NCBI RefSeq assembly: GCF_000255115.2
Contig: NC_018068.1
Span: 2,017,977-2,081,976 of the forward strand
Direction: 5' to 3'
Length of the DNA stretch: 64,000 nucleotides
Source: Desulfosporosinus acidiphilus SJ4
Lineage (GTDB): Bacteria > Bacillota > Desulfitobacteriia > Desulfitobacteriales > Desulfitobacteriaceae
The position numbers and the translations under genes are program-made. The notes under the pieces were generated by a model. It was not told the DNA's origin. It was given only the letters and a program-made list of their open reading frames with translations, and ran no database searches. The stretch's first letter is position 1. Every line of letters begins with the position of its first letter. Shown here piece by piece: positions 9,232 to 61,549 of this stretch.

Positions 9232-10473
9232 TTGAGTTTATTTGTCGGTATAGATGTGAGTTCCAGTGATTTTAAAGTGCGAATCTTAGATGAGCGTGGT
9301 AATGAACCAGTTAAAAGGCTAAGGGTTTTGAATGATCAGCCTGGTTGTGAGCAAGTTGCCCGATATCTCTCTGAAGCCTGTAATAAAGAGAATGAGGACC
9401 GGCTGGTTATTGGTTTAGAGGCCACTTCCGTGTACAGTTGGCCGTTACAAATGTTCTTAGCGGAAGACCATTGTTTAGCACCTTTACAGCCCCAAATTTA
9501 TTCCTTTAACCCCAAGGTCGTTGCTAATTTCAAAAAGGCTTATGTGGACCTTCCGAAGAACGACTGGATTGATGCCTGGGTCATTGCCGAACGTTTACGC
9601 TTCGGCCGGCTCCCGGAGGGCTCTCAGGTCGATTTCCGCTACTTACCGTTACAGCGACTCACTCGCTTTCGTTGTCATCTGATCGAGATGATCTCCAGAG
9701 AGAAGAATTATTTCCTCACGAACTTGTTCTTAAAGTTTAGCACTCTTGCCCAAGGTACGGTTTTTAGTAATACTTTCAGCGTTACTTCTGAATCCTTGAC
9801 ACTTGAGTTTTTTTCTCCAGAAGAGGTTGCGGCTCGACCGCTTGATGAACTGATTGATTTCCTCATGGAGAAAGGAAGAAGTCATTTCGAGGATCCGGAA
9901 GCCAAAGCCAGAGAGTTGAAGGAAGCCGCTCGCAAGGCCCATCGACTACGTGGAAGCCTATTGCAACCCATTAACCTTATCCTAGCCACGAGCATCGAAA
10001 CCATCCACACTTTAGAGAAACAGGTCAAGAAAATCGATAAGGCGATCGAAGCTGAAATCAGGCATTTCCCTAATACGCTCATTACCATTCCCGGTATTGG
10101 CCCTGTGCTTTCAGCTGGTATTATTGCTGAGATTGGAGACATCCGCCGTTTTCCGAATGAAGGAGCCTTAGCAAAGTTTATTGGGCTAACCTGGCGTTCT
10201 CACCAGTCCGGTGATTTTACAGCCGATGACACGCCCTTAACTCGAACCGGCAACACCTACTTGCGAAGTTATATCATCCAGGCTGCTAACCTAGTACGCC
10301 AAAAGGAACCAGAGTACAAAGCCTTCTACCAACGTAAATTCTCGGAAAGTAAGACTCACCATCATCGCCGTGCTCTCGTGCTTACTGCACGCAAACTCGT
10401 CCGTATGGTTGATGCTCTGCTACGCAGCAACCAAATCTATATGCCACATGGCAATAGGGGGATTGCAAACTAA
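9232..10473 (+). CDS. IS110-family transposase (DEDD / Tnp_20)
   Basis: A 413-residue transposase. The N-terminal RuvC-like DEDD domain starts with FVGIDVSSSDFKV (first Asp at residue 8), followed by GLEATSVY and a DLPKNDWIDAW segment that supply the other acidic residues. The C-terminal transposase_20 domain is marked by LITIPGIGPVLSAGIIAEIGD and RSHQSGDF, where the Ser is the likely nucleophile. Length is normal for the family and the frame is intact, so the element could be active. The TTG start at 9232 is preceded by GAGGTG at suitable spacing. Confidence 0.9.
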   Translation: MSLFVGIDVSSSDFKVRILDERGNEPVKRLRVLNDQPGCEQVARYLSEACNKENEDRLVIGLEATSVYSWPLQMFLAEDHCLAPLQPQIYSFNPKVVANFKKAYVDLPKNDWIDAWVIAERLRFGRLPEGSQVDFRYLPLQRLTRFRCHLIEMISREKNYFLTNLFLKFSTLAQGTVFSNTFSVTSESLTLEFFSPEEVAARPLDELIDFLMEKGRSHFEDPEAKARELKEAARKAHRLRGSLLQPINLILATSIETIHTLEKQVKKIDKAIEAEIRHFPNTLITIPGIGPVLSAGIIAEIGDIRRFPNEGALAKFIGLTWRSHQSGDFTADDTPLTRTGNTYLRSYIIQAANLVRQKEPEYKAFYQRKFSESKTHHHRRALVLTARKLVRMVDALLRSNQIYMPHGNRGIAN

Positions 10474-22847: not shown

Positions 22848-22873
22848 TGGTGCGGTCGAGAGGACTTGAACCT
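22848..22873. repeat. attL: 26-bp copy of the tRNA-Leu 3' end
   Basis: The 26-bp sequence starting TGGTGCGGTCGAGAGGAC is identical to 61524-61549, where it is the complement of the T-arm, acceptor and CCA of a tRNA-Leu. It stands 75 bp from the integrase stop codon. It is read as the left attachment site of a 38.7-kb integrated element. Confidence 0.85.
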
Positions 22874-22949: not shown

Positions 22950-24014
22950 TTAAAGCAGGCTAGTGATGGTTCCGCCTTTTCTTAGGCTATGGCTATAGAT
23001 TCCCGCTGTGGTCGCTGGGACTTGGCCAAGTTGTTCGGCCACTGTGGTAATAGATGCACCAGAATCTAGCATAAGGGAACCTACACCATGCCGGAGATCA
23101 TGTATTCGAATGTGATGGAGTCCGGCCTTTTTTAAAACCTCCTGCTTGGTCTTGTACAGGGCCTCATAGGGCAGAAAGTCGCCATTATCACTTTGAAAGA
23201 CGAAATCATTATCATTAGCTTTGTTATTTTGAGACATTGCTTTTTTGTATTCCCTAAGTTCTTCGGTTGTTTCCGAATCAAGTTGGAGTTCTCTTTTGCT
23301 GTTTTTGGTTTTGGTGGCCTTCAAATATCTTGATTTTGAATTGACCGCTTCGACAATCTTGATTTTTCCATCATGCGAAAGGTTTTTCCACTTTAGACCC
23401 ATTAATTCGCCAATTCTCATTCCGGTTATAGCTAAAATTTTTAAAGGCAGATAATGTTTGTAAAGTTTGGCGGTTTGAATAAAAAGTTTTAATTCATCAC
23501 TTTTAAGTACATTTCTGGAAACATGTTGGATCATTGGGGGTTTTATGCCTACCATAACATCCCGAGACAAATACTTTTTCCCGGCTCCCCAATTCAAAGC
23601 CGTCATGAGCGTTCGGTAGTGATTTTTAATTGTTCTCGCTGATAAGCCGCTACCATCTAATTCTTTGAGACGTTCCGCAATTATTACCGAATTCACAGTA
23701 TATAACTGTAAATCCCCCAATAAATCTTTGAGTTTTTCGGCGTGACGTTTGTATTGGTCATAAGTGCTTTTCTCAATTTGCTTTTGAATGTCATGTAGCC
23801 ATGTGATCAATAAGTCCTCTACGGATTGGATAGTGGTCTTAGATGAACCGACCTTAGTTTTGAAATCTAACTCCAGTTTGTTAGCATGAAGTTTGGCCTG
23901 GGGTTTCGAGCCATAGAAAGTCTCGTAATGAAATTGTTTTTTACCCTCACCATCCTTCTTTAAATATATCTGAATTTGCCATACGTTAGTTCCTCTATTT
24001 CTTAATTGTGCCAT
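22950..24014 (-). CDS. int: Tyrosine site-specific integrase
   Basis: About 354 residues in the layout of Tn916/phage-type integrases: an N-terminal arm-binding domain (WQIQIYLKKDGEGKKQFHYE), a SAM-like core-binding domain (residues about 65-150) and a catalytic domain with Arg in ITGMRIGELMG, the HxxR box in IHDLRHGVG and the nucleophile Tyr in AGIYSHSLRKG. It lies directly beside attL and reads toward it, as usual. ATG 24014 was chosen over upstream in-frame starts because it begins the family sequence MAQLRNRGT. It overlaps the end of the excisionase gene by 20 bp, so the two are coupled. Frame intact. Confidence 0.92.
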   Translation of the reverse strand: MAQLRNRGTNVWQIQIYLKKDGEGKKQFHYETFYGSKPQAKLHANKLELDFKTKVGSSKTTIQSVEDLLITWLHDIQKQIEKSTYDQYKRHAEKLKDLLGDLQLYTVNSVIIAERLKELDGSGLSARTIKNHYRTLMTALNWGAGKKYLSRDVMVGIKPPMIQHVSRNVLKSDELKLFIQTAKLYKHYLPLKILAITGMRIGELMGLKWKNLSHDGKIKIVEAVNSKSRYLKATKTKNSKRELQLDSETTEELREYKKAMSQNNKANDNDFVFQSDNGDFLPYEALYKTKQEVLKKAGLHHIRIHDLRHGVGSLMLDSGASITTVAEQLGQVPATTAGIYSHSLRKGGTITSLL

Positions 24015-24249
24015 TCGGTTTACGCCCCCTTTTCGGGGGTTGAGCTTTGCTAATATTATACGATAGATTATTGACATTTTCACCAGAACTAGAAATAAAT
24101 TCCGCTAAGGCATCTGATGATATTCGCGTCCTTCTCTCAGACAATCGTATAGCTTTAAGTTTGCCCTGACTAATGAGATCGTAAATGTAATTCGTTTTCG
24201 ACCTTAACATGGTAGCAACTTCCGGCACTGTATAGAAACTTATAGTCAT
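23995..24249 (-). CDS. xis: Excisionase-like DNA-binding protein (HTH_17)
   Basis: An 84-residue protein with the winged-helix HTH_17 pattern of excisionases: a VPEVATMLRSKTNYIYDLIS recognition region, then LKAIRLSERRTRISSDALAEF. Its 3' end overlaps the integrase start. Proteins of this type bind arm regions and turn the integrase toward excision. The C-terminal Lys/Arg-rich tail is typical. Confidence 0.82.
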   Translation of the reverse strand: MTISFYTVPEVATMLRSKTNYIYDLISQGKLKAIRLSERRTRISSDALAEFISSSGENVNNLSYNISKAQPPKRGRKPNGTIKK

Positions 24250-24724
24250 TTATAAAAACCACCTTTCACTTATAGTGGTTTTTGTCCAACAAGAAATTGA
24301 TTGGCGAAATTATTAATTTGGCTGATTTCATATGTTCTTTTGGAAAAAGGGCGACTAGTATGGTGAAATTTAATTCTAGTATTGACGGTTTATTGGTTGA
24401 GACAAGATATATGTTTCCGCAATCACATCACGTTGAAACGGTCGTTCGTTTGAAAGCGTTAACATGATTAATAGTAGCTTATCGGTTTTCGGAAATAGTG
24501 TTTAAATTTGTAACAACTAAGTAGGACCATCTTGAGGCTGTGAAAATTAGAAACAGTAATCGCCATATTGTTCCATATTTTTATGAATGGTCTGGCGAAT
24601 TTGTTTTTAAAAATAAATTTACGATCGATTAGAAGGAATATTTGGAAATATGTTGAATGCTTGGGGATATACTTTAGTGATTTTCTCAAACTCAAGTAGA
24701 TTAACATTTATAATTGGAAGTGGA

Positions 24725-27700
24725 ATGATGTTAGTACATGATAAAAAATTAACATTTACTGAACTAATGAATTATAACGTAGATAATCAAGGAGTTTTTG
24801 ATTCTATTTTAGAGAATATTCATTCACTTATACCTTTTGTAGGGGCTGGCCTTTCTGCTTTTGTTTATCCGAATTGGCACAAGTTCCTTGAAGATATTTT
24901 TAAAAAGATTTCTAGTCCTGAAAATGATGAGTATTTCATTAAGTTACTCAACGAATATAAATACGAAGAAGCAGCTACTCTTCTTAAATATGAACGTGGA
25001 AATGCTAATTTTTTTGATGATATTAAACAGACCTTTGGCAGTAATAAACTAAATGATATTACTCTTAATCAAGAATTTCACAAACAAGCAGTGTATCTAT
25101 TGCCATTTTTATTTAAAGGTCTTCTTATAACAACCAATTTTGATCAAGTTCTTGAAAAAACCTATAATTTGAATGGTATTCCATTTAATTCAATAGGTCA
25201 CCCAGGGCATAATGAAATGCTTAATTGGGCTTTAAGAACTCAAAATCAAACAACGCTATATAAGTTTCATGGCGACATATCAGAAGTAGGCAAATTAGTA
25301 TTAACTAAAGAAAGCTACGATTATTATTATAATCCATCAGGCGATTTGGTTCGTGAACTAAGTAAATGCTTTAAACAGAGAAGTATGTTATTTCTAGGTT
25401 GTAGCTTAAATACCGATCGAACCATGACTGTTCTTGAAAAAACGTTAGAAGATGGTTTTGTAAATTATGCAATTATTGACTCTGACGCTCAAAATATTAG
25501 AGAAAAATCGCGTAAACTGGCTAACAAAGGTATCCGTGCTATTCTATATCCTAAAGGACAACATGGTTCAGTCCGTATGATACTTGAAGGATTACTCGAA
25601 AGAATGAATAAAACAGCCTTTCAAAGATTAACTTATTACGAAAATCAAATTCACAATAAAGTTGATAATCGATTTGTTTATACCGCTGAGTCCGTTGGTT
25701 TTTTTGGTCGTGAAGAAGAAATAAAAAGGTTAATTGAATTCTGTACTGCTGATTTAGGTGACCATTATGTAAAATGGTGGGCCATAACAGGTGCTGGGGG
25801 AAGCGGCAAAAGCAGATTAGCATATGAGGTTCGAAAAGAATTAGTCTCAAAGAATTGGGATGTAATTATTCCAAAACAGTATGATTTTAACGGATTGCAG
25901 AAAATTTCAGAAAACCTTAATAAAAATACATTGTTTATTCTTGATTATGTATATGCCTATGCCAAGGATATTGGTAAGTGGTTCGAGGTTTTGTATAATA
26001 CTCCAAGCACTATAGTAAAACGCATTATTCTAATTGAGCGTGACGGAACTAATATTATTAACTCTTCTTGGGTAAATCTAATGAAAGACGGTACAATTTC
26101 AAGTCGAACTATTGACGATACTTGTTACCAAAAAAATTTTTTATTTCTTAATAATTTGGAATCAAAAGCAATTCTAAGAATAATGTTAGATTTTGCCAAG
26201 AACTATAACAAATCATTATCCGATTATTCGGTAAGTATATTGTATAAGATACTTCAGGATATTGACCCAGAATTAAGCAGACCTTTATACGCTTTATTCT
26301 TAGTTGATGCATTCTTAGAAAACAAAAATCCATTAAAATGGAAACGAAATGATGTTTTAAATTATATTATTGAGAGAGAGACTAAGCGATATCAAAATGA
26401 ATTAAATTTTATATCAAACGATCAAAAGTTTAAAAAAGCCTTTCTTCGAATTAAAGTATTGGCAACAATATTGCGCGGATTAAATATTCAAACAGAAGCG
26501 TTAAATTTTTGCAATAATGATTGGCAGGTTTTATGTAGTAAATCAGAAAATTACGATAGCACTGAGGAAATGTTGCTAGATACGAATTTGATTCGGAAAG
26601 ATAATGTTAATGATTATATTTTCACACCTATTAATCCCGATTTAATAGGCGAATATTTTGTTCTTAGCGAATTACTAAAAGAAAAGAAGAATAATGTAGA
26701 AAATATTATAAATAATTCTTGGAAAAAACCCGTAGAAGCATTCCAATTCTTTAGTAAATTATTTATTGACTACATTGACATTATGCACGAAAGAAAAGAC
26801 CTCATTAAATTAATGATTGAACCAATCCTTGAGGAAAACAATATCTTTCAAGAAGGGTTATTTTCGCTATTTTTAGTGCATTTAACTTTAGTAGCTGATA
26901 AGAGTATCATAGAGTCTGTAATTGTTAAACTCAGAGCACTGGCAAAAAGATACAAACATAATGCAATATTCCTTAAAAGGCTTGCAAATGGGTTGTCTAA
27001 TTTAACTGATAAGCAAGATGAATTAGGTGCAATGGCTTCTGTAGCTGAACTGAGACTATTAGTAAAGAAATACCCTGATATTGCCGATATTGTGATCTCA
27101 TATGCTAATGGACTTGTTAATTTATCGGTAAAACAAGATGTAACAGGTGCGAATACAACTGTGACGGAATTAAGAGCATTACTAAATGAATATGACAATA
27201 TTATATGGCTTGCAGTAGCTCTTGCAAGAGGTTTAAATAATTTGTCTATAAAGCAGAATGAAATCGGTGCATCTTCTACTGTAGGTGAATTGAAAATATT
27301 AGCAAATAACTATCCTTATCTTTCAGAGATTGTGGTGGAATTTTCAAAAGGCCTATTAAATTTGACCACTTTGCTAAATAAAAATGATGCGTTATTGGCA
27401 GTAAATGAACTAGGTGATCTAATTAAGAAGTATCCCCAAAATATTGATGTGATAGTTGGATATGCAAAAGGGCTAGCAAATTTGGTAATCAAACAAGATG
27501 AAACAGGCTCGATGTCAACAATTAATGAGTTAAAAGCTTTGATAAATGAATATTCGAACATTGAGGGAGTTATCGGGGAACTTGCGAGAGGTTTACTTAA
27601 TTTGTCTGTTAAGCAAGATGAGTCAAAGGTTACTGAAACAATTGCTGAACTAAAAGCATTGTTAAAAGAACACTGTGATAATAAAATAGTCATTAAGTGC

Positions 27701-28687
27701 TTTGCAAGCGGGTTGGCTAATCAATCTCGTAAGCAAGATGAAGAAGGTGTGGCTGCAACCACTACGGAATTAAGGCTTTTAGCTCATGAATATCCGGAAA
27801 ATGTTAATATCAAAGAGTGTCTTGCAAAAACTTTGAATAATCTCGCTAATAAACAAGATGAAACCGGTGCAACCATAACCGTAACTGAGTTGAAGGAATT
27901 GGTAGAGGAGTACTCTGATAATCAGGAAATATTGGTTAGTTATATTTATGGACTAAATAATCTGTCTATTAAACAGGATGTAGCTGCCTTAACTATAACA
28001 ATTAACACATTGAGATCTATGAAAAATAAGTACCCAAATAATATTGAGGTTATTAAATCGTTAGCAAATGCTCTTTTAAATTTGTCTTATAAAGAAGACA
28101 ACGAAACGGTGTTAGTTATGACAATTGCCGAACTTAGAAAACTTGTTGCTACCTATAGCTACAACATGGAGGTAGTTGTATATTTGGCACAGGGCTTAGT
28201 TAATTTATTAGCTAGGCAAAATGAGGTAAGTGCAAAAGATACAATTGAAGAAATAAAAATGTTGGCTTTTAAATATCCGGACAATGAAAATATAATAGTT
28301 GCCTTGGCAAATGGGTTATTTAATATGTGTTATAAACAAAATGAAGTAGACGGAACAGTTACAGTTAATGAGATAAGAGCCTTAGCTAAAAAATATTCAC
28401 ATATTGTGGAAGTTATCGGAATGCTCGCAAGGGCCCTAAATAATTTATTGGCAAAACAAAATGAATTGAATGCATTAATTACAATTGCTGAAATTAAAGT
28501 GTTATTCCAAAAGTACCCCAATATCGATGAGGTTGTACTAGCCTTAGCAAGAGGGTTATTCAATTTGTCTAGTTTGCAAAATGAAAAAGATGCAAACATA
28601 ACTATTTCAGAACTTCAAGAGTTAGCTAAAATGTATCCCACAAATTATGATATTAATGAAATTCTCTTAGAAATAAATCAAGGATAA
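24725..28687 (+). CDS. SIR2-STAND NTPase with about 14 tandem C-terminal repeats (Avs5-like defence protein)
   Basis: A very large protein (about 1,320 residues from ATG 24725, which has GGAAGTGG upstream; an ATG at 24650 is also in frame). Domains: an N-terminal SIR2-like NADase (PFVGAGLSA near residue 37, LLITTNFDQVLE near 135, FHGD near 182, FLGCSL near 222), then a P-loop NTPase with Walker A TGAGGSGKS (near 355) and Walker B TLFILDYVY. From about residue 755 to the end there are about 14 repeats of 39-40 residues with consensus GLxNLSxKQDExGAxxTVxE followed by LKALxxxYPxNxxVVxxLA. SIR2-STAND proteins (Avs5 group) are anti-phage sensors that deplete NAD+ on recognising a phage protein; the repeats are the likely sensor. 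It stands alone on the + strand. The antiviral role is inferred. Confidence 0.82.
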   Translation: MMLVHDKKLTFTELMNYNVDNQGVFDSILENIHSLIPFVGAGLSAFVYPNWHKFLEDIFKKISSPENDEYFIKLLNEYKYEEAATLLKYERGNANFFDDIKQTFGSNKLNDITLNQEFHKQAVYLLPFLFKGLLITTNFDQVLEKTYNLNGIPFNSIGHPGHNEMLNWALRTQNQTTLYKFHGDISEVGKLVLTKESYDYYYNPSGDLVRELSKCFKQRSMLFLGCSLNTDRTMTVLEKTLEDGFVNYAIIDSDAQNIREKSRKLANKGIRAILYPKGQHGSVRMILEGLLERMNKTAFQRLTYYENQIHNKVDNRFVYTAESVGFFGREEEIKRLIEFCTADLGDHYVKWWAITGAGGSGKSRLAYEVRKELVSKNWDVIIPKQYDFNGLQKISENLNKNTLFILDYVYAYAKDIGKWFEVLYNTPSTIVKRIILIERDGTNIINSSWVNLMKDGTISSRTIDDTCYQKNFLFLNNLESKAILRIMLDFAKNYNKSLSDYSVSILYKILQDIDPELSRPLYALFLVDAFLENKNPLKWKRNDVLNYIIERETKRYQNELNFISNDQKFKKAFLRIKVLATILRGLNIQTEALNFCNNDWQVLCSKSENYDSTEEMLLDTNLIRKDNVNDYIFTPINPDLIGEYFVLSELLKEKKNNVENIINNSWKKPVEAFQFFSKLFIDYIDIMHERKDLIKLMIEPILEENNIFQEGLFSLFLVHLTLVADKSIIESVIVKLRALAKRYKHNAIFLKRLANGLSNLTDKQDELGAMASVAELRLLVKKYPDIADIVISYANGLVNLSVKQDVTGANTTVTELRALLNEYDNIIWLAVALARGLNNLSIKQNEIGASSTVGELKILANNYPYLSEIVVEFSKGLLNLTTLLNKNDALLAVNELGDLIKKYPQNIDVIVGYAKGLANLVIKQDETGSMSTINELKALINEYSNIEGVIGELARGLLNLSVKQDESKVTETIAELKALLKEHCDNKIVIKCFASGLANQSRKQDEEGVAATTTELRLLAHEYPENVNIKECLAKTLNNLANKQDETGATITVTELKELVEEYSDNQEILVSYIYGLNNLSIKQDVAALTITINTLRSMKNKYPNNIEVIKSLANALLNLSYKEDNETVLVMTIAELRKLVATYSYNMEVVVYLAQGLVNLLARQNEVSAKDTIEEIKMLAFKYPDNENIIVALANGLFNMCYKQNEVDGTVTVNEIRALAKKYSHIVEVIGMLARALNNLLAKQNELNALITIAEIKVLFQKYPNIDEVVLALARGLFNLSSLQNEKDANITISELQELAKMYPTNYDINEILLEINQG

Positions 28688-29883: not shown

Positions 29884-31104
29884 ATGTTAAGTTCAAAACA
29901 AATCCAAATACCAAAGTTAACATTAGAAAGCCAAAACCTAGATTCATGGTCAACAACAATTAAAGGTTTTTTGATTTCTGCTCAACACTTTGTTTTAAAC
30001 GAATTAGAAAAACGAGTAAAACGTGATGATAGTTCATCGCCCATAGTTATTGCAGGTATAAGGGTCATTAAACAAGTTTTGCCCTGTCCAGTTGAGCGGT
30101 ATCGTATGGATACATTTTATATATTACGGTTACGACTGGGTAAAGGTGCATACGAGTATAATGAAAATACCCGACCAAGTGAGTTATTTGATACGATGAT
30201 AGATGTAGATTCCCAATGGAATGAGAGCTACGATCCAAGAAGTCATGATGTTTGGATTAAAGTACCAAAGGGTAAAAGTTTTGAAAAATATTTTAATGTG
30301 TCAATGCTACAAGAGGCTATAGAATCTTTGATAAGAGATGAACAGGATATGTTAATAGATTTACGTGGTCAAGCGCTGAGTACTATTGGTTTTCGACCAT
30401 TAGAGCTACGTATTCCAAGTGGAGAGCCGGACAAACGAATAAAGGCTGTCACCAGAATAATTGGTTGTGAAACGACCGAAATTTCGGGATATGATTTAGT
30501 AAGCGATATGCAAAAAAGTTCACTACTTAAGACTTGTCCTGATGAAATTGAACAAGTCATGCACCGCGCGAGATTGTTATATGTAAATGCTTATTACGAA
30601 TGGGAATTTTTTACCATCTCGGTTCATTATGCAGTATTGGCTTTAGAAGCCTCTTTAAGGGCGTTATATGACGAATGGCTTGGAGCTGGATGTGTTGAGG
30701 TTTCTGCAGAAATTGAAGGAAAGCAAGTTGTTGAAAGAGTATACGGGCCTCGTGAAAACATATTAAATTGGGCAAATGGACAAAAAGCAAGAAAGATTAC
30801 TGTCAAAGGTGCTCCGTTTCCACGGAACAAACCCCATCTTCTTGACCATGCAGTGAGAATTGGAGCACTATCGCTTTGGGAAAAGGAGAGGTGTTCTTAT
30901 TTATTACATCTTAGGGATGTATTTTCCCACCCTAAGGGGACTTTTACAGACTGGATCAGTTGGGCTAGTGGAGACATTTTAGAATCAAGCTTATGGATCA
31001 ACCTCATGTGGGCTAGATTTTATAGAACATTGCCCTATGAATTTGCCTGGAAAAAGAAACCGATAATTAAGTTAAGCAATAAAAATCAAATCACCTCCTC
31101 TTGA
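29884..31104 (+). CDS. HEPN-motif protein (406 aa), possible RNase of a defence or toxin system
   Basis: The family as a whole is unknown to me. The C-terminal third has a helical HEPN-like layout: a hydrophobic helix pair (FTISVHYAVLALEASLRALY) and, later, CSYLLHLRDVFSHPKG, in which R-DVFS-H matches the RX4-6H signature of HEPN ribonucleases. The first 200 residues are alpha/beta and unrecognised. AAAGG lies 9 nt before the ATG. It lies between the fosX remnant and an SF1 helicase gene on the same strand (305 bp apart). The role is inferred from the motif; nuclease activity is not shown. Confidence 0.6.
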   Translation: MLSSKQIQIPKLTLESQNLDSWSTTIKGFLISAQHFVLNELEKRVKRDDSSSPIVIAGIRVIKQVLPCPVERYRMDTFYILRLRLGKGAYEYNENTRPSELFDTMIDVDSQWNESYDPRSHDVWIKVPKGKSFEKYFNVSMLQEAIESLIRDEQDMLIDLRGQALSTIGFRPLELRIPSGEPDKRIKAVTRIIGCETTEISGYDLVSDMQKSSLLKTCPDEIEQVMHRARLLYVNAYYEWEFFTISVHYAVLALEASLRALYDEWLGAGCVEVSAEIEGKQVVERVYGPRENILNWANGQKARKITVKGAPFPRNKPHLLDHAVRIGALSLWEKERCSYLLHLRDVFSHPKGTFTDWISWASGDILESSLWINLMWARFYRTLPYEFAWKKKPIIKLSNKNQITSS

Positions 31105-31409: not shown

Positions 31410-34400
31410 ATGGATATCAGAACACTACAATACTGGCATAAGCTAGAGCATTTTAATCCTTACTCACTACAGGAACAACATAATGAAAATATAAAAACCT
31501 TTTCGATACTGAGAGCAGAGTTATTTCCGAATTTTCGAGATCCTGTTATCAAACCCGGAAAAGTGATCCGATACTATAATGTCTATTTTGGGATTTTCAA
31601 AATAGATGGCGCGCTTAAAGCATTGGAAAAAGGAATGGGCAAAAAGATGCGCTTTCGAGATACTGGTGACGATGAAAGCTGTTTTTGCAGCTTCAGCTTA
31701 GATACACAGGGGATATTTAACCCAGACAGCTTTCGTGTTTCCTCCTTTCCATGGGCAATTCACAGAGTACGCGACGGGAAAATTGTTATGGACGAGTGGG
31801 ATCAGGCATTCCATTCCTTTGAGACCTCTATGTTTCTTTATCTTAAGGATAATAACGAGACTATGACTTATGATTTCCTTCTAAAGGCACGTAACTACTT
31901 CGCAAGCTACCTTAACTGGGAGTTGGACTTCAGTGATGTATGGCTGCGCATCGATATGGTAATCGGTGACAAGCAGGACCCCGAAGAAAATAAAGCTATA
32001 GCTGATGGTGCTGGTGATGAAATAGTGGAGCAGGCGGAACCTGATACCCAGGCCGATGATGAGGAAACCGATGCTCAAATCAAACAAAATGATCTGTTTA
32101 ATAGTTTTTTTGTGCGCGATCTTGAGCGGATTATTGCAGACGTCAGTAAGAATGAATCCGTATGTGGGGAGAGCTTTCGTAATTTTTTAGAGCACGGAGC
32201 CAGAAACAGGATTGATATTGAACACAGCCCAGACGTACTGCTTGAACTGATGGCTCCACGAAATCTTCCGAAGGGGCGGTGGCCTAGTGATTACGGGTCC
32301 CGTTTTATGCAACAGGTCAATGTTAATGCATTTCTGGCGGATACGATCTATGAACAGCCTCTCTTTTCGGTCAACGGGCCACCTGGGACAGGAAAAACAA
32401 CGTTGCTCAAGGATATTATAGCAGCAATTGTTGTGAACCGAGCGAATGCCATGTGCAATCTCGCCACCCCTGATGATGCATTTGCAGAAGAAATCTGTCA
32501 AATCGAAACTAAAACTAACAAAGGGTTGTACATCAACCATGTGTTCGAATTAAAACCTGAAATAAGGCGTTATGGAATACTAGTAACTTCGAACAATAAC
32601 GGAGCAGTGGAAAATATTACACATAGCCTTCCCTCCATTGTTGAAATACCAAAAGAGTATAATCTGGAGGAATACCAGTATTTTTCAGAGGTTTCCGACC
32701 TTCTCTTTGGCGAAGGGAAAACATGGGCGTTGAATGCTGCTGCCTTGGGCAACCGTAAAAATTGCACACGGTTTGTTGAGAGTTTTTGGCCACTTAATAA
32801 GGATTCTAAAGATGCAGTTAGGTATGACCTGAACAAAATGCTGAGGGAACGCATAAAGAAAATCTCGAAGCAAGATTGGGACCGGTCTAAAGCTAGGTTT
32901 CAGGCGGCCCTTGTAGAGTTTGACAAGGAATATGTGCAGATAGAGTCGATATATAAACATGTTTTGAAATACCGTCAGTTACAGGTTGATTTACAGGATG
33001 TTGACAAAGAGATAGGCAAAGTAAAAACATCCGAAAATGCAATTTCTGAGCAATTAACTTTTCAAAAGCAAGAGTTGGAACGGTTGCAACAAGAAATCGG
33101 TCGTTGCCGTACATCATTAGAAGAAATGAGGAAAAGCGACCCGTTACTCATCATTAAGTCCTTGTTCTGGCGCAGCCGATGGTGCAACACATATCGAGAC
33201 CTTCAGCGTCAGCTCCAATCTTGCGTAATGCACCAACAGAAGCAAAACAAGGTGGTTATCGAAATCGAGCAGGCAAAACAAATACTAAAAATTAATATAG
33301 AGAGTCTGGGTCAAAAACGTGTAAATTTGGAGTCTGAGTTAGCAGTTGAACGAGAAAAGCTAGAGCAATTTCGAGCAAAGACCAGTTCACATTTTCGTGT
33401 TGATGAATATTTTTTCGGCAACGCTAATGAGGAGTTGAGCAAAACATCTCCTTGGGGATACAGTGATTTGAATCGACTCCGGGAAACGCTATTTTTGGAG
33501 GCGTTACAATTACATAAAGCTTTCGTAGAAAATTCAAAGCTACTGCGGGATAATCTGGATGCTTTTGCAAAACTAATGCGGAGGCAAATACCTGCGATTA
33601 AAGCAAAAACTGCTGCATCTGCTTTGCTGCAAAGTTTTTTTCTGATTGTCCCGGTAGTTTCTACGACTTTCGCGTCGGTAGGGTCGTTTCTGAAGGACAT
33701 ACCCCCAGAGGACATCGGATATCTTTTCATAGACGAAGCGGGTCAGGCCATGCCCCAATCGGCTGCTGGAGCTATATGGCGTGCCAAAAAGGTCATTGCT
33801 GTGGGAGATCCACTTCAAATTGAGCCAGTAGTCACGCTACACGACAGTGTTATCGATGCACTGGGAAGATACTATTCGCAGGACATCATCATCACCGATA
33901 AGTTCACCAGTGTACAGAGCTTAAGTGATCTTGCCAACAGGCTGGGTGGCTTTCGCACTCTGGAAGAACCTGACGATTTGTGGATTGGTGCTCCATTGAT
34001 AGTGCATAACAGGTGTCAGCCCAAGGTATTCAAGATCTCCAACGAAATCGCGTACAACAACAAGATGATTTACGCATCCAAAAAACGAGATTATGCCGAA
34101 TGTACCTGGCTGCATGTGTGCGGAAATAGCCGAAATGGTCACTATGTACCCGAGCAAACTAAAGAGATTTTGCCGATCATCAAGAAATGTTTTAAAGAGT
34201 ATGCTGATAAAAATGATCCTTCACAAAAGTATCCTTCTCTTTTTCTCATTTCTCCATTTCGTAGTGTCCGAGCAGGTCTTGCGACTTTTTTCAGGAACAA
34301 CCTATATGGCGAATTAGAACAAATGGGTATTGCTGTAAACACGCATGTTGTCAGAGCTTGGATCAGTAATTGTATTGGAACCATCCATACTTTTCAAGGC

Positions 34401-34601
34401 AAACAAGCGGATACAGTTGTGCTGTGCCTTGGTGTTGATTCGGGAGGTAAAGGCGAGGGAGCTGTCCAGTGGGCATGTCAACGACCTAATATTCTCAATG
34501 TAGCTGTCACCCGTGCGCAAGGGAATCTGTATATAGTTGGAGATAGGTCAGTCTGGGGAAACAGAGATTATTTTGAGACCGCTTTGACGTACTGCACATA
34601 A
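31410..34601 (+). CDS. Superfamily 1 DNA2/NAM7-like helicase
   Basis: A 1,063-residue protein with the split ATPase of the AAA_11/AAA_12 helicases. Motif I is NGPPGTGKTTL (near residue 325), followed by a long coiled-coil insertion (about 500-660), motif II YLFIDEAGQAMPQ, motif III GDPLQIEP, and the C-terminal motifs IGTIHTFQGKQADTV and LNVAVTRAQGNLYIVGD. Start: ATG 31410 with AGGAG at 6 nt. Helicases of this type occur in several bacterial defence systems, and its neighbours (SIR2-STAND, HEPN protein) make that role plausible, but it could also serve element maintenance. The first 300 residues are not recognised. Confidence 0.8.
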   Translation: MDIRTLQYWHKLEHFNPYSLQEQHNENIKTFSILRAELFPNFRDPVIKPGKVIRYYNVYFGIFKIDGALKALEKGMGKKMRFRDTGDDESCFCSFSLDTQGIFNPDSFRVSSFPWAIHRVRDGKIVMDEWDQAFHSFETSMFLYLKDNNETMTYDFLLKARNYFASYLNWELDFSDVWLRIDMVIGDKQDPEENKAIADGAGDEIVEQAEPDTQADDEETDAQIKQNDLFNSFFVRDLERIIADVSKNESVCGESFRNFLEHGARNRIDIEHSPDVLLELMAPRNLPKGRWPSDYGSRFMQQVNVNAFLADTIYEQPLFSVNGPPGTGKTTLLKDIIAAIVVNRANAMCNLATPDDAFAEEICQIETKTNKGLYINHVFELKPEIRRYGILVTSNNNGAVENITHSLPSIVEIPKEYNLEEYQYFSEVSDLLFGEGKTWALNAAALGNRKNCTRFVESFWPLNKDSKDAVRYDLNKMLRERIKKISKQDWDRSKARFQAALVEFDKEYVQIESIYKHVLKYRQLQVDLQDVDKEIGKVKTSENAISEQLTFQKQELERLQQEIGRCRTSLEEMRKSDPLLIIKSLFWRSRWCNTYRDLQRQLQSCVMHQQKQNKVVIEIEQAKQILKINIESLGQKRVNLESELAVEREKLEQFRAKTSSHFRVDEYFFGNANEELSKTSPWGYSDLNRLRETLFLEALQLHKAFVENSKLLRDNLDAFAKLMRRQIPAIKAKTAASALLQSFFLIVPVVSTTFASVGSFLKDIPPEDIGYLFIDEAGQAMPQSAAGAIWRAKKVIAVGDPLQIEPVVTLHDSVIDALGRYYSQDIIITDKFTSVQSLSDLANRLGGFRTLEEPDDLWIGAPLIVHNRCQPKVFKISNEIAYNNKMIYASKKRDYAECTWLHVCGNSRNGHYVPEQTKEILPIIKKCFKEYADKNDPSQKYPSLFLISPFRSVRAGLATFFRNNLYGELEQMGIAVNTHVVRAWISNCIGTIHTFQGKQADTVVLCLGVDSGGKGEGAVQWACQRPNILNVAVTRAQGNLYIVGDRSVWGNRDYFETALTYCT

Positions 34602-39060: not shown

Positions 39061-39500
39061 GTCTCCACTTTGTCAACTCTTTTTTCGTTTCGTCTCCACT
39101 TTGTCATCATTTTTTTGTGTGTTATCTCCACTTTTTCACGTTTTGTCTCCACCTTTGTCTCCACTTTTGTCACATACGTAAAGAGCTGAAACCCAACAGC
39201 CACGAGGGTTTCAGCTCTTTGTTGTTTATTTTGTCTCCACTTTGTCCACCTTTTCGAGAATATATACTATATATTTTTCGATGTGCAAATAACCCCTAAA
39301 GTATATCCTAAATCAAAACAGTGGACAAAGTGGAGACAGTGGAGACCTAATTATAGCTGAAACCCCTATGGGAGTGAGCTTGTGGCGTTTTAATTGATGT
39401 GACAAAAGTGGAGATAAAACCTTAAAAAGTGGAGACAAAACTGTGACAAAGTGGAGATATAGAATGACAAAGTGAGGACACAAAATGACAAAGTGGAGAC
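39061..39500. repeat. Opposed iteron arrays, likely replication origin
   Basis: Six copies of GTCTCCACTTTGTC or close variants run forward (39061, 39092, 39124, 39145, 39157, 39233). About six run in the reverse complement GACAAAGTGGAGAC (39324, 39401, 39424, 39445, 39466, 39487). Between the two arms is an AT-rich core (39247-39320, including ATATATACTATATA). The forward arm is interrupted by a terminator hairpin at 39182-39219 (AGAGCTGAAACC with its complement). The plan, iterons of opposite orientation around an AT-rich stretch next to a replication gene, fits an origin. Confidence 0.7.
39182..39222 (+). terminator. Terminator within the iteron region
   Basis: A 12-bp stem, AGAGCTGAAACC (from 39183) with GGTTTCAGCTCT (to 39218), runs into TTGTTGTTTATTTTG. 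It should end the transcript of the DUF927 gene. Confidence 0.7.
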
Positions 39501-39501
39501 A

Positions 39502-39556
39502 TAACAACAATAACAACAACAACAACAACAATAATAATAATAATAATAATAATAAT
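39502..39556 (+). repeat. Trinucleotide microsatellite (AAC)n-(AAT)n
   Basis: About 55 bp of uninterrupted triplets, first ACA/AAC-type and then TAA-type, directly after the last iteron. Such long triplet runs are unusual in bacteria and could unwind easily or vary in length. The 500 bp that follow (to 40.05 kb) show no gene I can support. Confidence 0.85.
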
Positions 39557-40059
39557 ATCTTTTGCGGAAAATTTTCCCAATTTATTACAGCGATTTTTTG
39601 TGGCCTTTTTTCCTAACCCCTCACCCAAGGTCAATCGCAGTATGTTTGTGGTCTTTTATCCCTCTCTCATCGCCACGCAATCGCCCTTCGGCCCTCCAGG
39701 GTACGAATATACCACCACACCGCTCGAACTCGATCTCAGAGCAAAACGCGCAATTTGTCGAACCTGAAAGCGTTGGTGCAGGCTGGTTTCAGAGATAGAT
39801 AGATTTCATGGTCTGGTATTTTTGTTTTATCTTGGATTATTTCCGGGACCTTAGGAGGGAATAGAGGAAAGGTGTAGAAGTTTAATGAAGATACTCCTTT
39901 CGCCGAAGAATGAATGTGTAGCTGCGTGGACATAACCACTTTGTTAGTAGGATAGACGTGACTAAGGGCTAATTCAGAGTGGCCCGAATGTCTATAACTG
40001 GAAGTTGGAGATGTCATAATAAGTTATGCCCACAGCGAATTCGTAGGGGCTAAAAAGAA

Positions 40060-61523: not shown

Positions 61524-61549
61524 TGGTGCGGTCGAGAGGACTTGAACCT
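61524..61549. repeat. attR: 26-bp tRNA-Leu 3' end
   Basis: Identical over 26 bp to the left copy at 22848-22873. It is the 3' end of the truncated tRNA-Leu described next, and so the right border of the 38.7-kb element. Confidence 0.85.

What the first reader, a model, noticed from the sequence alone, without database searches (positions are those of the whole stretch)
24725..28687. SIR2-STAND defence protein with 14 near-identical sensor repeats
The NAD-cleaving SIR2 domain, P-loop NTPase and a C-terminal array of about 14 repeats of 39-40 residues (GLxNLSxKQDE core) form an Avs5-like architecture. The repeat array at about 26987-28660 is regular at DNA level too (117-123-bp period), so it could expand or contract and change what the protein recognises.
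Basis: partly seen in the sequence, partly recalled or inferred. Interest (0 to 1): 0.68.

Follow-up and report, generated by a model that had tools for sequence, protein, structure and literature searches.

The report
SIR2-STAND immune sensor, evolving repeat array
A bacterial gene on a mobile element encodes an immune-type sensor that probably destroys the cell's NAD when its 14-repeat arm grips a foreign protein, and across its relatives the number of repeats and five residues per repeat change fast, as in fungal immune receptors.

Summary
The gene is real: 24725-28687 (+), 1320 aa, with an intact SIR2 NADase domain (GAGLS, TTNFD, HG), a STAND-type NTPase and 14 C-terminal repeats. The repeats are not near-identical. 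They are 40 residues long (one is 41), average 40% protein and 54% DNA identity, and third codon positions are at the codon-usage background, so this array shows no sign of recent expansion or contraction. A family of 15 same-architecture proteins, mostly from gut Clostridia, carries 3 to about 28 repeats. Sister proteins with 73% identical cores have 6 and 12. In many relatives, but not here, the repeats are recent DNA duplicates. Between those duplicates five positions per repeat, all on one face of the first helix and close to the known TPR ligand-contact positions, change faster than silent sites (omega 1.6-2.0). The rest is conserved. Foldseek's best full-length match is Avs5, but the NTPase is closest to nSTAND5, not nSTAND3, and sequence similarity to Avs5 is confined to SIR2. 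Best reading: an Avs5-like, NAD-depleting sensor of a separate lineage, carried by a 38.7-kb element in tRNA-Leu. Fungal NLRs show the same repeat evolution. I found no description of it for a bacterial SIR2-STAND protein.

The parts
24725..28687 (+). SIR2-STAND repeat protein gene, 1320 aa (the ORF could start at 24650, 1345 aa; 24725 fits the starts of relatives, which lie a few residues before the ITFxEIM motif)
24758..25618 (+). SIR2 NADase domain, about aa 12-298; GAGLS aa 40-44 (24842-24856), TTNFD aa 136-140 (25130-25144), HGD aa 182-184 (25268-25276)
   Evidence: Pfam PF13289 E 1.9e-23; motifs invariant in 15 relatives; VIA Z 23 to ThsA over aa 12-296
25652..26869 (+). STAND NTPase and following helical region, about aa 310-715; Walker A GAGGSGKS aa 356-363 (25790-25813), Walker B FILD ending at D407, arginine R439, RP motif aa 519-520
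   Evidence: nSTAND_NTPase5 is the best family for all 12 relatives, above cut-off in L022; VIA matches to NLRC4, plant NRC, Apaf-1 and MalT
26867..26986 (+). degenerate first half-repeat
   Evidence: 4.6-bit repeat-HMM hit, helices in the model
26987..28684 (+). 14 repeats of 40 aa (repeat 10 has 41), two 17-aa helices each: alpha-solenoid sensor arm
22950..24083 (-). tyrosine integrase of the element carrying the gene
   Evidence: Pfam Phage_integrase E 1.1e-22
23995..24249 (-). small HTH_17 protein, excisionase-like
22848..22873 (.). att copy, 26 bp, equal to the reverse complement of the tRNA-Leu(CAG) 3' end; left end of the element
61524..61549 (.). second att copy; right end of the 38.7-kb element and left end of the next element

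Best explanation
The gene encodes a single-protein, NLR-like immune sensor. At rest, the C-terminal alpha-solenoid of 14 repeats holds the STAND NTPase closed. A polypeptide from an invader, most likely a phage protein, lies along the inner face of the solenoid, contacted by the first helix of each repeat. A conserved asparagine in each repeat may hold the ligand backbone while neighbouring variable residues read its side chains. Binding lets the NTPase exchange nucleotide and oligomerise, which brings the SIR2 domains together and switches on NAD+ hydrolysis, stopping growth or killing the infected cell. Across the family, specificity appears to be rewritten by duplicating and deleting whole repeats and by diversifying selection at five positions per repeat. 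Shown here: the domain order, intact catalytic residues, the fold prediction, repeat-number variation between relatives, recent duplication in relatives' arrays, and the positional excess of amino-acid change. Inferred: ligand type, binding face, oligomerisation, NAD loss and phage defence.
For: SIR2 domain with all catalytic motifs invariant in 15 relatives. SIR2 profile matches ThsA, DSR2, KomC and an AVAST5-filament chain in the PDB. Foldseek top hits for the whole chain include EfAvs5 (rank 1) and the AVAST5 filament (rank 3), then DSR2 and NLRs. NTPase core shared by relatives with different N-termini (L037, L038), i.e. effector exchange typical of STAND proteins. Repeat number 3 to ~28 in relatives. 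Synonymous-site identity among repeats 0.57-0.78 against a null near 0.4 in L005, L022, L024, L027, L037 and L038. Repeats closer within an array than to the sister array. Columns 3, 7, 8, 37 and 40 have omega 1.57-1.96 with bootstrap intervals above 1, the remaining columns are constrained, and the column choice holds in cross-validation. These columns lie on one face of helix A with spacing 0,3,6,10,11, against 0,3,7,10,11 for the concave ligand positions 2,5,9,12,13 of TPRs (PMC1261162). The gene lies beside the integrase in a tRNA-Leu element that also carries a Mokosh-like helicase.
Against: No experiment. No ligand and no phage association. No intraspecific comparison was possible. The repeats of this particular protein show no recent duplication, and one of the five fast columns (column 8) is a conserved lysine here. 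With unfiltered, disjoint adjacent repeat pairs omega at the five columns is 1.17 (p 0.07), probably from saturation. The helical-face test on its own is weak (p 0.046).
Confidence: 0.68

Rival explanations
1. It is an ordinary Avs5: a sensor of one conserved early phage protein such as the jumbo-phage activator JADA, with the repeat array acting mainly as a structural and autoinhibitory arm whose repeat number matters little.
For: Same domain order and top fold match; Avs5 C-terminal helices are also poorly conserved and essential for activation (PMC12931631).
Against: NTPase closest to nSTAND5 rather than nSTAND3; no NTPase-level or Avs5-model match; the long 40-aa array with positional diversifying change does not fit a single conserved ligand.
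Confidence: 0.15
2. The five fast columns reflect relaxed constraint at solvent-exposed positions plus gene conversion, not selection for new binding specificity; the arrays are scaffolds.
For: Unfiltered adjacent pairs give omega 1.17, p 0.07; overall omega of young repeat pairs is below 1; Nei-Gojobori counts on 40-codon units are noisy.
Against: Edges selected without using silent sites or the five columns still give omega 1.57-1.96 with bootstrap intervals above 1; other exposed columns of both helices stay well below; the pattern resembles known TPR ligand positions.
Confidence: 0.22
3. The system is not an antiviral sensor but a kin- or element-recognition device, for example guarding its host integrative element against competitors or discriminating neighbours, as fungal het-d/het-e NLRs do.
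For: It is carried next to the integrase of a mobile element with a second element in the same tRNA gene; the same repeat evolution in fungi serves allorecognition (PMC12881547).
Against: SIR2-STAND relatives with tested function are antiphage; no contact or secretion genes were seen beside it.
Confidence: 0.12

Closest known systems
Avs5 / AVAST type 5 (PaAvs5, EcAvs5, EfAvs5)
   Same: SIR2-NTPase-helical repeat order; GAGxS, TTNxD and HG motifs; best Foldseek match of the whole model
   Different: NTPase closest to nSTAND5, not nSTAND3; no sequence match outside SIR2; 14 regular 40-aa repeats instead of a few TPR/Sel1/PPR motifs
Fungal NLRs with highly conserved TPR/ANK/WD repeats (Podospora het-d/het-e family; PMC4986451, PMC12222747)
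   Same: Tripartite STAND protein; repeat-number variation, within-array homogenisation and fast change at concave positions
   Different: Bacterial; SIR2 effector; 40-aa two-helix repeats; variation shown here between species, not between strains; the window's own array is old and not homogenised
DSR1/DSR2
   Same: SIR2 NADase with a long alpha-helical C-terminus; SIR2 Z about 21
   Different: No STAND P-loop NTPase (own knowledge); DSR2 senses a phage tail tube protein (abstract of PMC10981675)
Diversity-generating-retroelement STAND sensors (PMC10907252)
   Same: STAND sensor proteins with hypervariable C-termini
   Different: Variation there comes from a reverse transcriptase acting on a C-type lectin domain; none of the window proteins I scanned is a reverse transcriptase

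Membership tests
Avs5 (AVAST type 5) | N-terminal SIR2_2 (PF13289) with GAGxS, TTNxD and HG or NG | tested here: met
   PF13289 E 1.9e-23; motifs invariant in 15 relatives, HG version
Avs5 (AVAST type 5) | nSTAND3 NTPase (PF20720) | tested here: not met
   nSTAND3 16.5 bits against cut-off 27.2 and matched by 2 of 12 relatives; nSTAND5 matched by 12 of 12, above cut-off in L022
Avs5 (AVAST type 5) | match to the Avs5 family model (PADLOC PDLC02170) beyond the SIR2 domain | tested here: not met
   no hit for the window protein at E<=10; relatives hit only over SIR2; NTPase profile finds no Avs5 chain in the PDB
Avs5 (AVAST type 5) | whole-chain SIR2-STAND-helical-repeat fold | tested here: met
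   Foldseek ranks 1 and 3 are EfAvs5 9jap and AVAST5 9nc9, E about 1e-11; chain-wide TM-scores are low (0.17-0.28), so domain order rather than one rigid superposition
Avs5 (AVAST type 5) | activation by jumbo-phage JADA, filament formation, NAD loss | not testable with these tools
   needs experiments; described for Avs5 in PMC12931631 and PMC12700824
STAND NTPase, nSTAND5 class (PF25199) | Pfam gathering score reached | tested here: inconclusive
   window 22.5 bits (25.6 for the NTPase part) against cut-off 34; relative L022 34.6
STAND NTPase, nSTAND5 class (PF25199) | P-loop, Walker B and STAND-like fold between effector and repeats | tested here: met
   invariant G358 G359 G361 K362 S363, D407, R439, R519 P520; VIA Z 14-16 to NLRC4, NRC1, NRC2, MalT and Apaf-1
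TPR repeat family | Pfam TPR model reached in the repeats | tested here: not met
   no TPR family listed for the window protein; relative L022 passes TPR_20 and TPR_14
TPR repeat family | tandem helix pairs forming an alpha-solenoid | tested here: met
   two AF2 models, 17-aa helix pairs; matches are to ARM, HEAT and TPR solenoids alike, so the sub-type is open
NLR with highly conserved, diversifying repeats (fungal type) | repeat-number variation between close relatives | tested here: met
   6 against 12 repeats at 73% core identity, 9 against ~28 at 54%; within-species variation not tested
NLR with highly conserved, diversifying repeats (fungal type) | high internal identity of repeats (about 85% over 100 aa) | tested here: not met
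   window mean 36-40%; L022 mean 76%, best pair 95%
NLR with highly conserved, diversifying repeats (fungal type) | positive selection at ligand-face positions | tested here: inconclusive
   omega 1.57-1.96 at five columns in relatives' young repeats, but 1.17, p 0.07 without filtering; that these columns are the concave ligand face is inferred

The most novel reading that the evidence does not exclude
A bacterial NLR lineage whose sensor is an evolvable modular polypeptide reader: each 40-aa repeat presents a fixed asparagine to the ligand backbone and five fast-evolving residues to its side chains, and lineages rewrite what they recognise by duplicating, deleting and diversifying repeats, with repeat number setting the length of foreign polypeptide read. 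This would be a bacterial counterpart of the fungal NLR repeat system, wired to NAD destruction.
Probability: 0.3. Interest if true: 0.82.

Novelty: new variant of a known kind. Interest (0 to 1): 0.6.

Why it matters
How bacterial STAND sensors change specificity is an open question. The characterised Avs proteins appear to read conserved phage folds. A family in which repeats are visibly duplicated and diversified at defined positions gives a direct handle: swap or delete repeats and map the ligand. It would also show that repeat turnover with diversifying change, known from fungal NLRs, arose in bacterial NAD-depleting sensors, and it supplies about 15 natural variants with different array lengths.

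Tried and rejected
Near-identical repeats with ongoing DNA-level turnover in this gene: rejected. TetR_C_22 and TetR_C_15 Pfam hits at the repeats: taken as spurious summed partial hits, each to about 35 aa of a 113-aa domain; the AF2 models show a regular solenoid. Diversity-generating retroelement: none of the window proteins scanned is a reverse transcriptase, and changes at the fast columns involve all base pairs. Relatives in phage or viral collections: none. Plasmids: mostly SIR2-only hits, plus one repeat-region and one NTPase-only hit. A first genome-contig scan with the single protein found nothing; the profile scan gave 47 loci. Pooled omega over all repeat columns is below 1, so selection is claimed only for the five columns. 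Positive selection was tested three ways because the first filter (low silent change) biases omega upwards. HMMER against the PDB with the repeats gave only weak TPR hits.
Full report
Observation. The ORF at 24725-28687 is open for 1320 codons. Pfam finds SIR2_2 at E 1.9e-23. The repeat array begins at 26987 and holds 14 units, 13 of 40 residues and one of 41, preceded by a degenerate half unit. Autocorrelation at lag 40 is 0.367 against a shuffled maximum of 0.113. The claim of near-identity fails: mean protein identity is 40%, DNA 54%, third positions 43%, the last close to a codon-usage null of 0.40. Tandem Repeats Finder sees nothing there.

Relatives. One full-length relative was found among 398 phylum genomes (L005, 34% over 1100 residues) and another in the family of that genome (L019). 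A profile scan of genome contigs returned 47 loci. Fifteen proteins, window included, share SIR2, NTPase and repeats. The family is rare: only one full-length member turned up in about 390 genomes of the class and in the overlapping draw from the order; the other matches there were partial. In the window's own family of 45 genomes no other copy exists.

Architecture. GAG(x)S, TTNxD and HG of SIR2 and the P-loop, D407, R439 and R519-P520 of the NTPase are invariant or nearly so in 15 relatives. The SIR2 profile matches FAM118B, ThsA, DSR2, KomC and an AVAST5 chain in the PDB. AF2 on residues 1-1154 gives pLDDT 86.5 and pTM 0.64. Foldseek's best whole-chain match is EfAvs5, with SAMD9 second, the AVAST5 filament third, then DSR2 and NLRs; chain-wide TM-scores are low because domains are placed differently. 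VIA-align gives Z 23 for SIR2 to ThsA and 14-16 for the NTPase to NLRC4, plant NRCs, MalT and Apaf-1. A single-sequence AF2 model of the whole array (pLDDT 85.8) is a continuous alpha-solenoid resembling ARM, HEAT and TPR solenoids.

Avs5 or not. Avs5 is defined by PF13289 plus nSTAND3 plus C-terminal helical repeats (PMC12931631). Here nSTAND5 is the best Pfam family for all 12 NTPase sequences and passes its cut-off in L022, while nSTAND3 does not. The NTPase profile finds no Avs5 chain in the PDB even at E 5. The PADLOC Avs5 model misses the window protein and covers only SIR2 in relatives. So it works like Avs5 in outline but is not filed as Avs5.

Modularity. L037 and L038 carry the same NTPase and repeats behind an unrelated N-terminus. 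L006 is a 348-aa protein made only of these repeats. A Streptomyces plasmid protein joins an nSTAND5 NTPase to repeats, with a lipase-like gene immediately upstream.

Repeat evolution. Repeat counts run from 3 (L019/L028) to about 28 (L023). On the core tree, L031 (6) and L024 (12) are sisters at 73% core identity, and L022 (9) and L023 (28) are sisters at 54%. Within arrays of L005, L022, L024, L027, L037 and L038, third-position identity is 0.57-0.78 against nulls of 0.36-0.44, so repeats there are recent DNA copies. Repeats of L024 are 72-88% identical within the array (one terminal unit aside) but at most 72% to its sister's: concerted evolution. The window array and L023 lack this signal or show it only weakly.

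Selection. Between young repeat copies, columns 3, 7, 8, 37 and 40 (column 1 = G of GLxNL) carry most amino-acid change, while columns 2, 5, 9, 21 and 24 hardly change. Columns picked in half the arrays keep omega above 1 in the other half (mean 1.9). Because that first filter favours low silent change, I repeated the test choosing pairs only by amino-acid change outside the five columns: omega 1.57-1.96, bootstrap intervals above 1. Without filtering, on disjoint adjacent pairs, it is 1.17 with p 0.07; saturation is the likely cause, but the claim is therefore moderate. In the window's own array columns 7, 37, 40 and 3 rank in the upper third of variability, column 8 does not.

Where the fast positions lie. 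DSSP puts all five on the first helix of each repeat; they share one face (permutation p 0.046). Their spacing, 0, 3, 6, 10, 11, is nearly that of TPR positions 2, 5, 9, 12, 13, the variable concave ligand-contact residues (0, 3, 7, 10, 11; PMC1261162). A conserved Asn (column 4, 136 of 171 repeats) points to the same face. In OGT and SPINDLY, asparagine ladders on the inner TPR helices bind the substrate backbone (PMC9715652). The equivalence of register is my inference; the ladder residue there is TPR position 5 or 6, not 9.

Setting. A 26-bp repeat equal to the tRNA-Leu(CAG) 3' end lies at 22848 and 61524, with the intact tRNA about 19 kb beyond. Two integrative elements therefore sit in tandem in one tRNA gene. 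The first, 38.7 kb, carries the integrase, the SIR2-STAND gene and a helicase matching MkoC of Mokosh at E 7e-60. The second carries proteins that look like phage terminase, portal and capsid, plus its own integrase (read by eye).

Comparison and verdict. In Podospora, NLR TPR and ANK repeats show repeat-number polymorphism, concerted evolution and positive selection on concave sites (PMC4986451). I found no paper in the held library that reports this for a bacterial SIR2-STAND protein, but most subscription journals and all preprints are outside it. The finding is a new variant of a known kind; the family, more than this one copy, is the interesting object.

Noticed in passing
window 22848-61549 and G000:C3 to 2098786: Two tandem integrative elements in tRNA-Leu(CAG), with 26-bp att copies at window 22848, 61524 and about 80724; the second element (19 kb) carries proteins that look like phage terminase, portal and capsid.
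   Followed up: partly
window 31410-34601 (+): 1063-aa superfamily 1 helicase matching PADLOC MkoC (Mokosh) at E 7e-60, next to an unannotated 406-aa gene at 29884-31104: possibly a second defence system on the same element.
   Followed up: no
window 39061-39557: Dense short tandem and mutually complementary repeats (GTCTCCACTTTGTCA / TGACAAAGTGGAGAC, then an ATA run) downstream of a DUF927 gene; perhaps an iteron-like origin.
   Followed up: no
L006 1474-2520 (-): A stand-alone 348-aa protein made almost wholly of the same 40-aa repeats, about 9 units.
   Followed up: partly
L037 5443-8562 and L038 5308-7908: Same NTPase and repeat array fused to an unidentified N-terminal domain of about 200 aa instead of SIR2: candidate unknown effector.
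   Followed up: partly
L078 1303-8060: Streptomyces plasmid protein of 1783 aa with an nSTAND5 NTPase and long repeats, preceded by an overlapping lipase-like gene: possible two-gene version.
   Followed up: partly
L023 1173-6878: About 28 repeats in a 1901-aa protein, the longest array seen, with old, non-homogenised repeats.
   Followed up: partly
window 9232-10473 and L077 13286-14527: Transposase-like ORFs with the same translation lie outside the first element and inside the second element.
   Followed up: no
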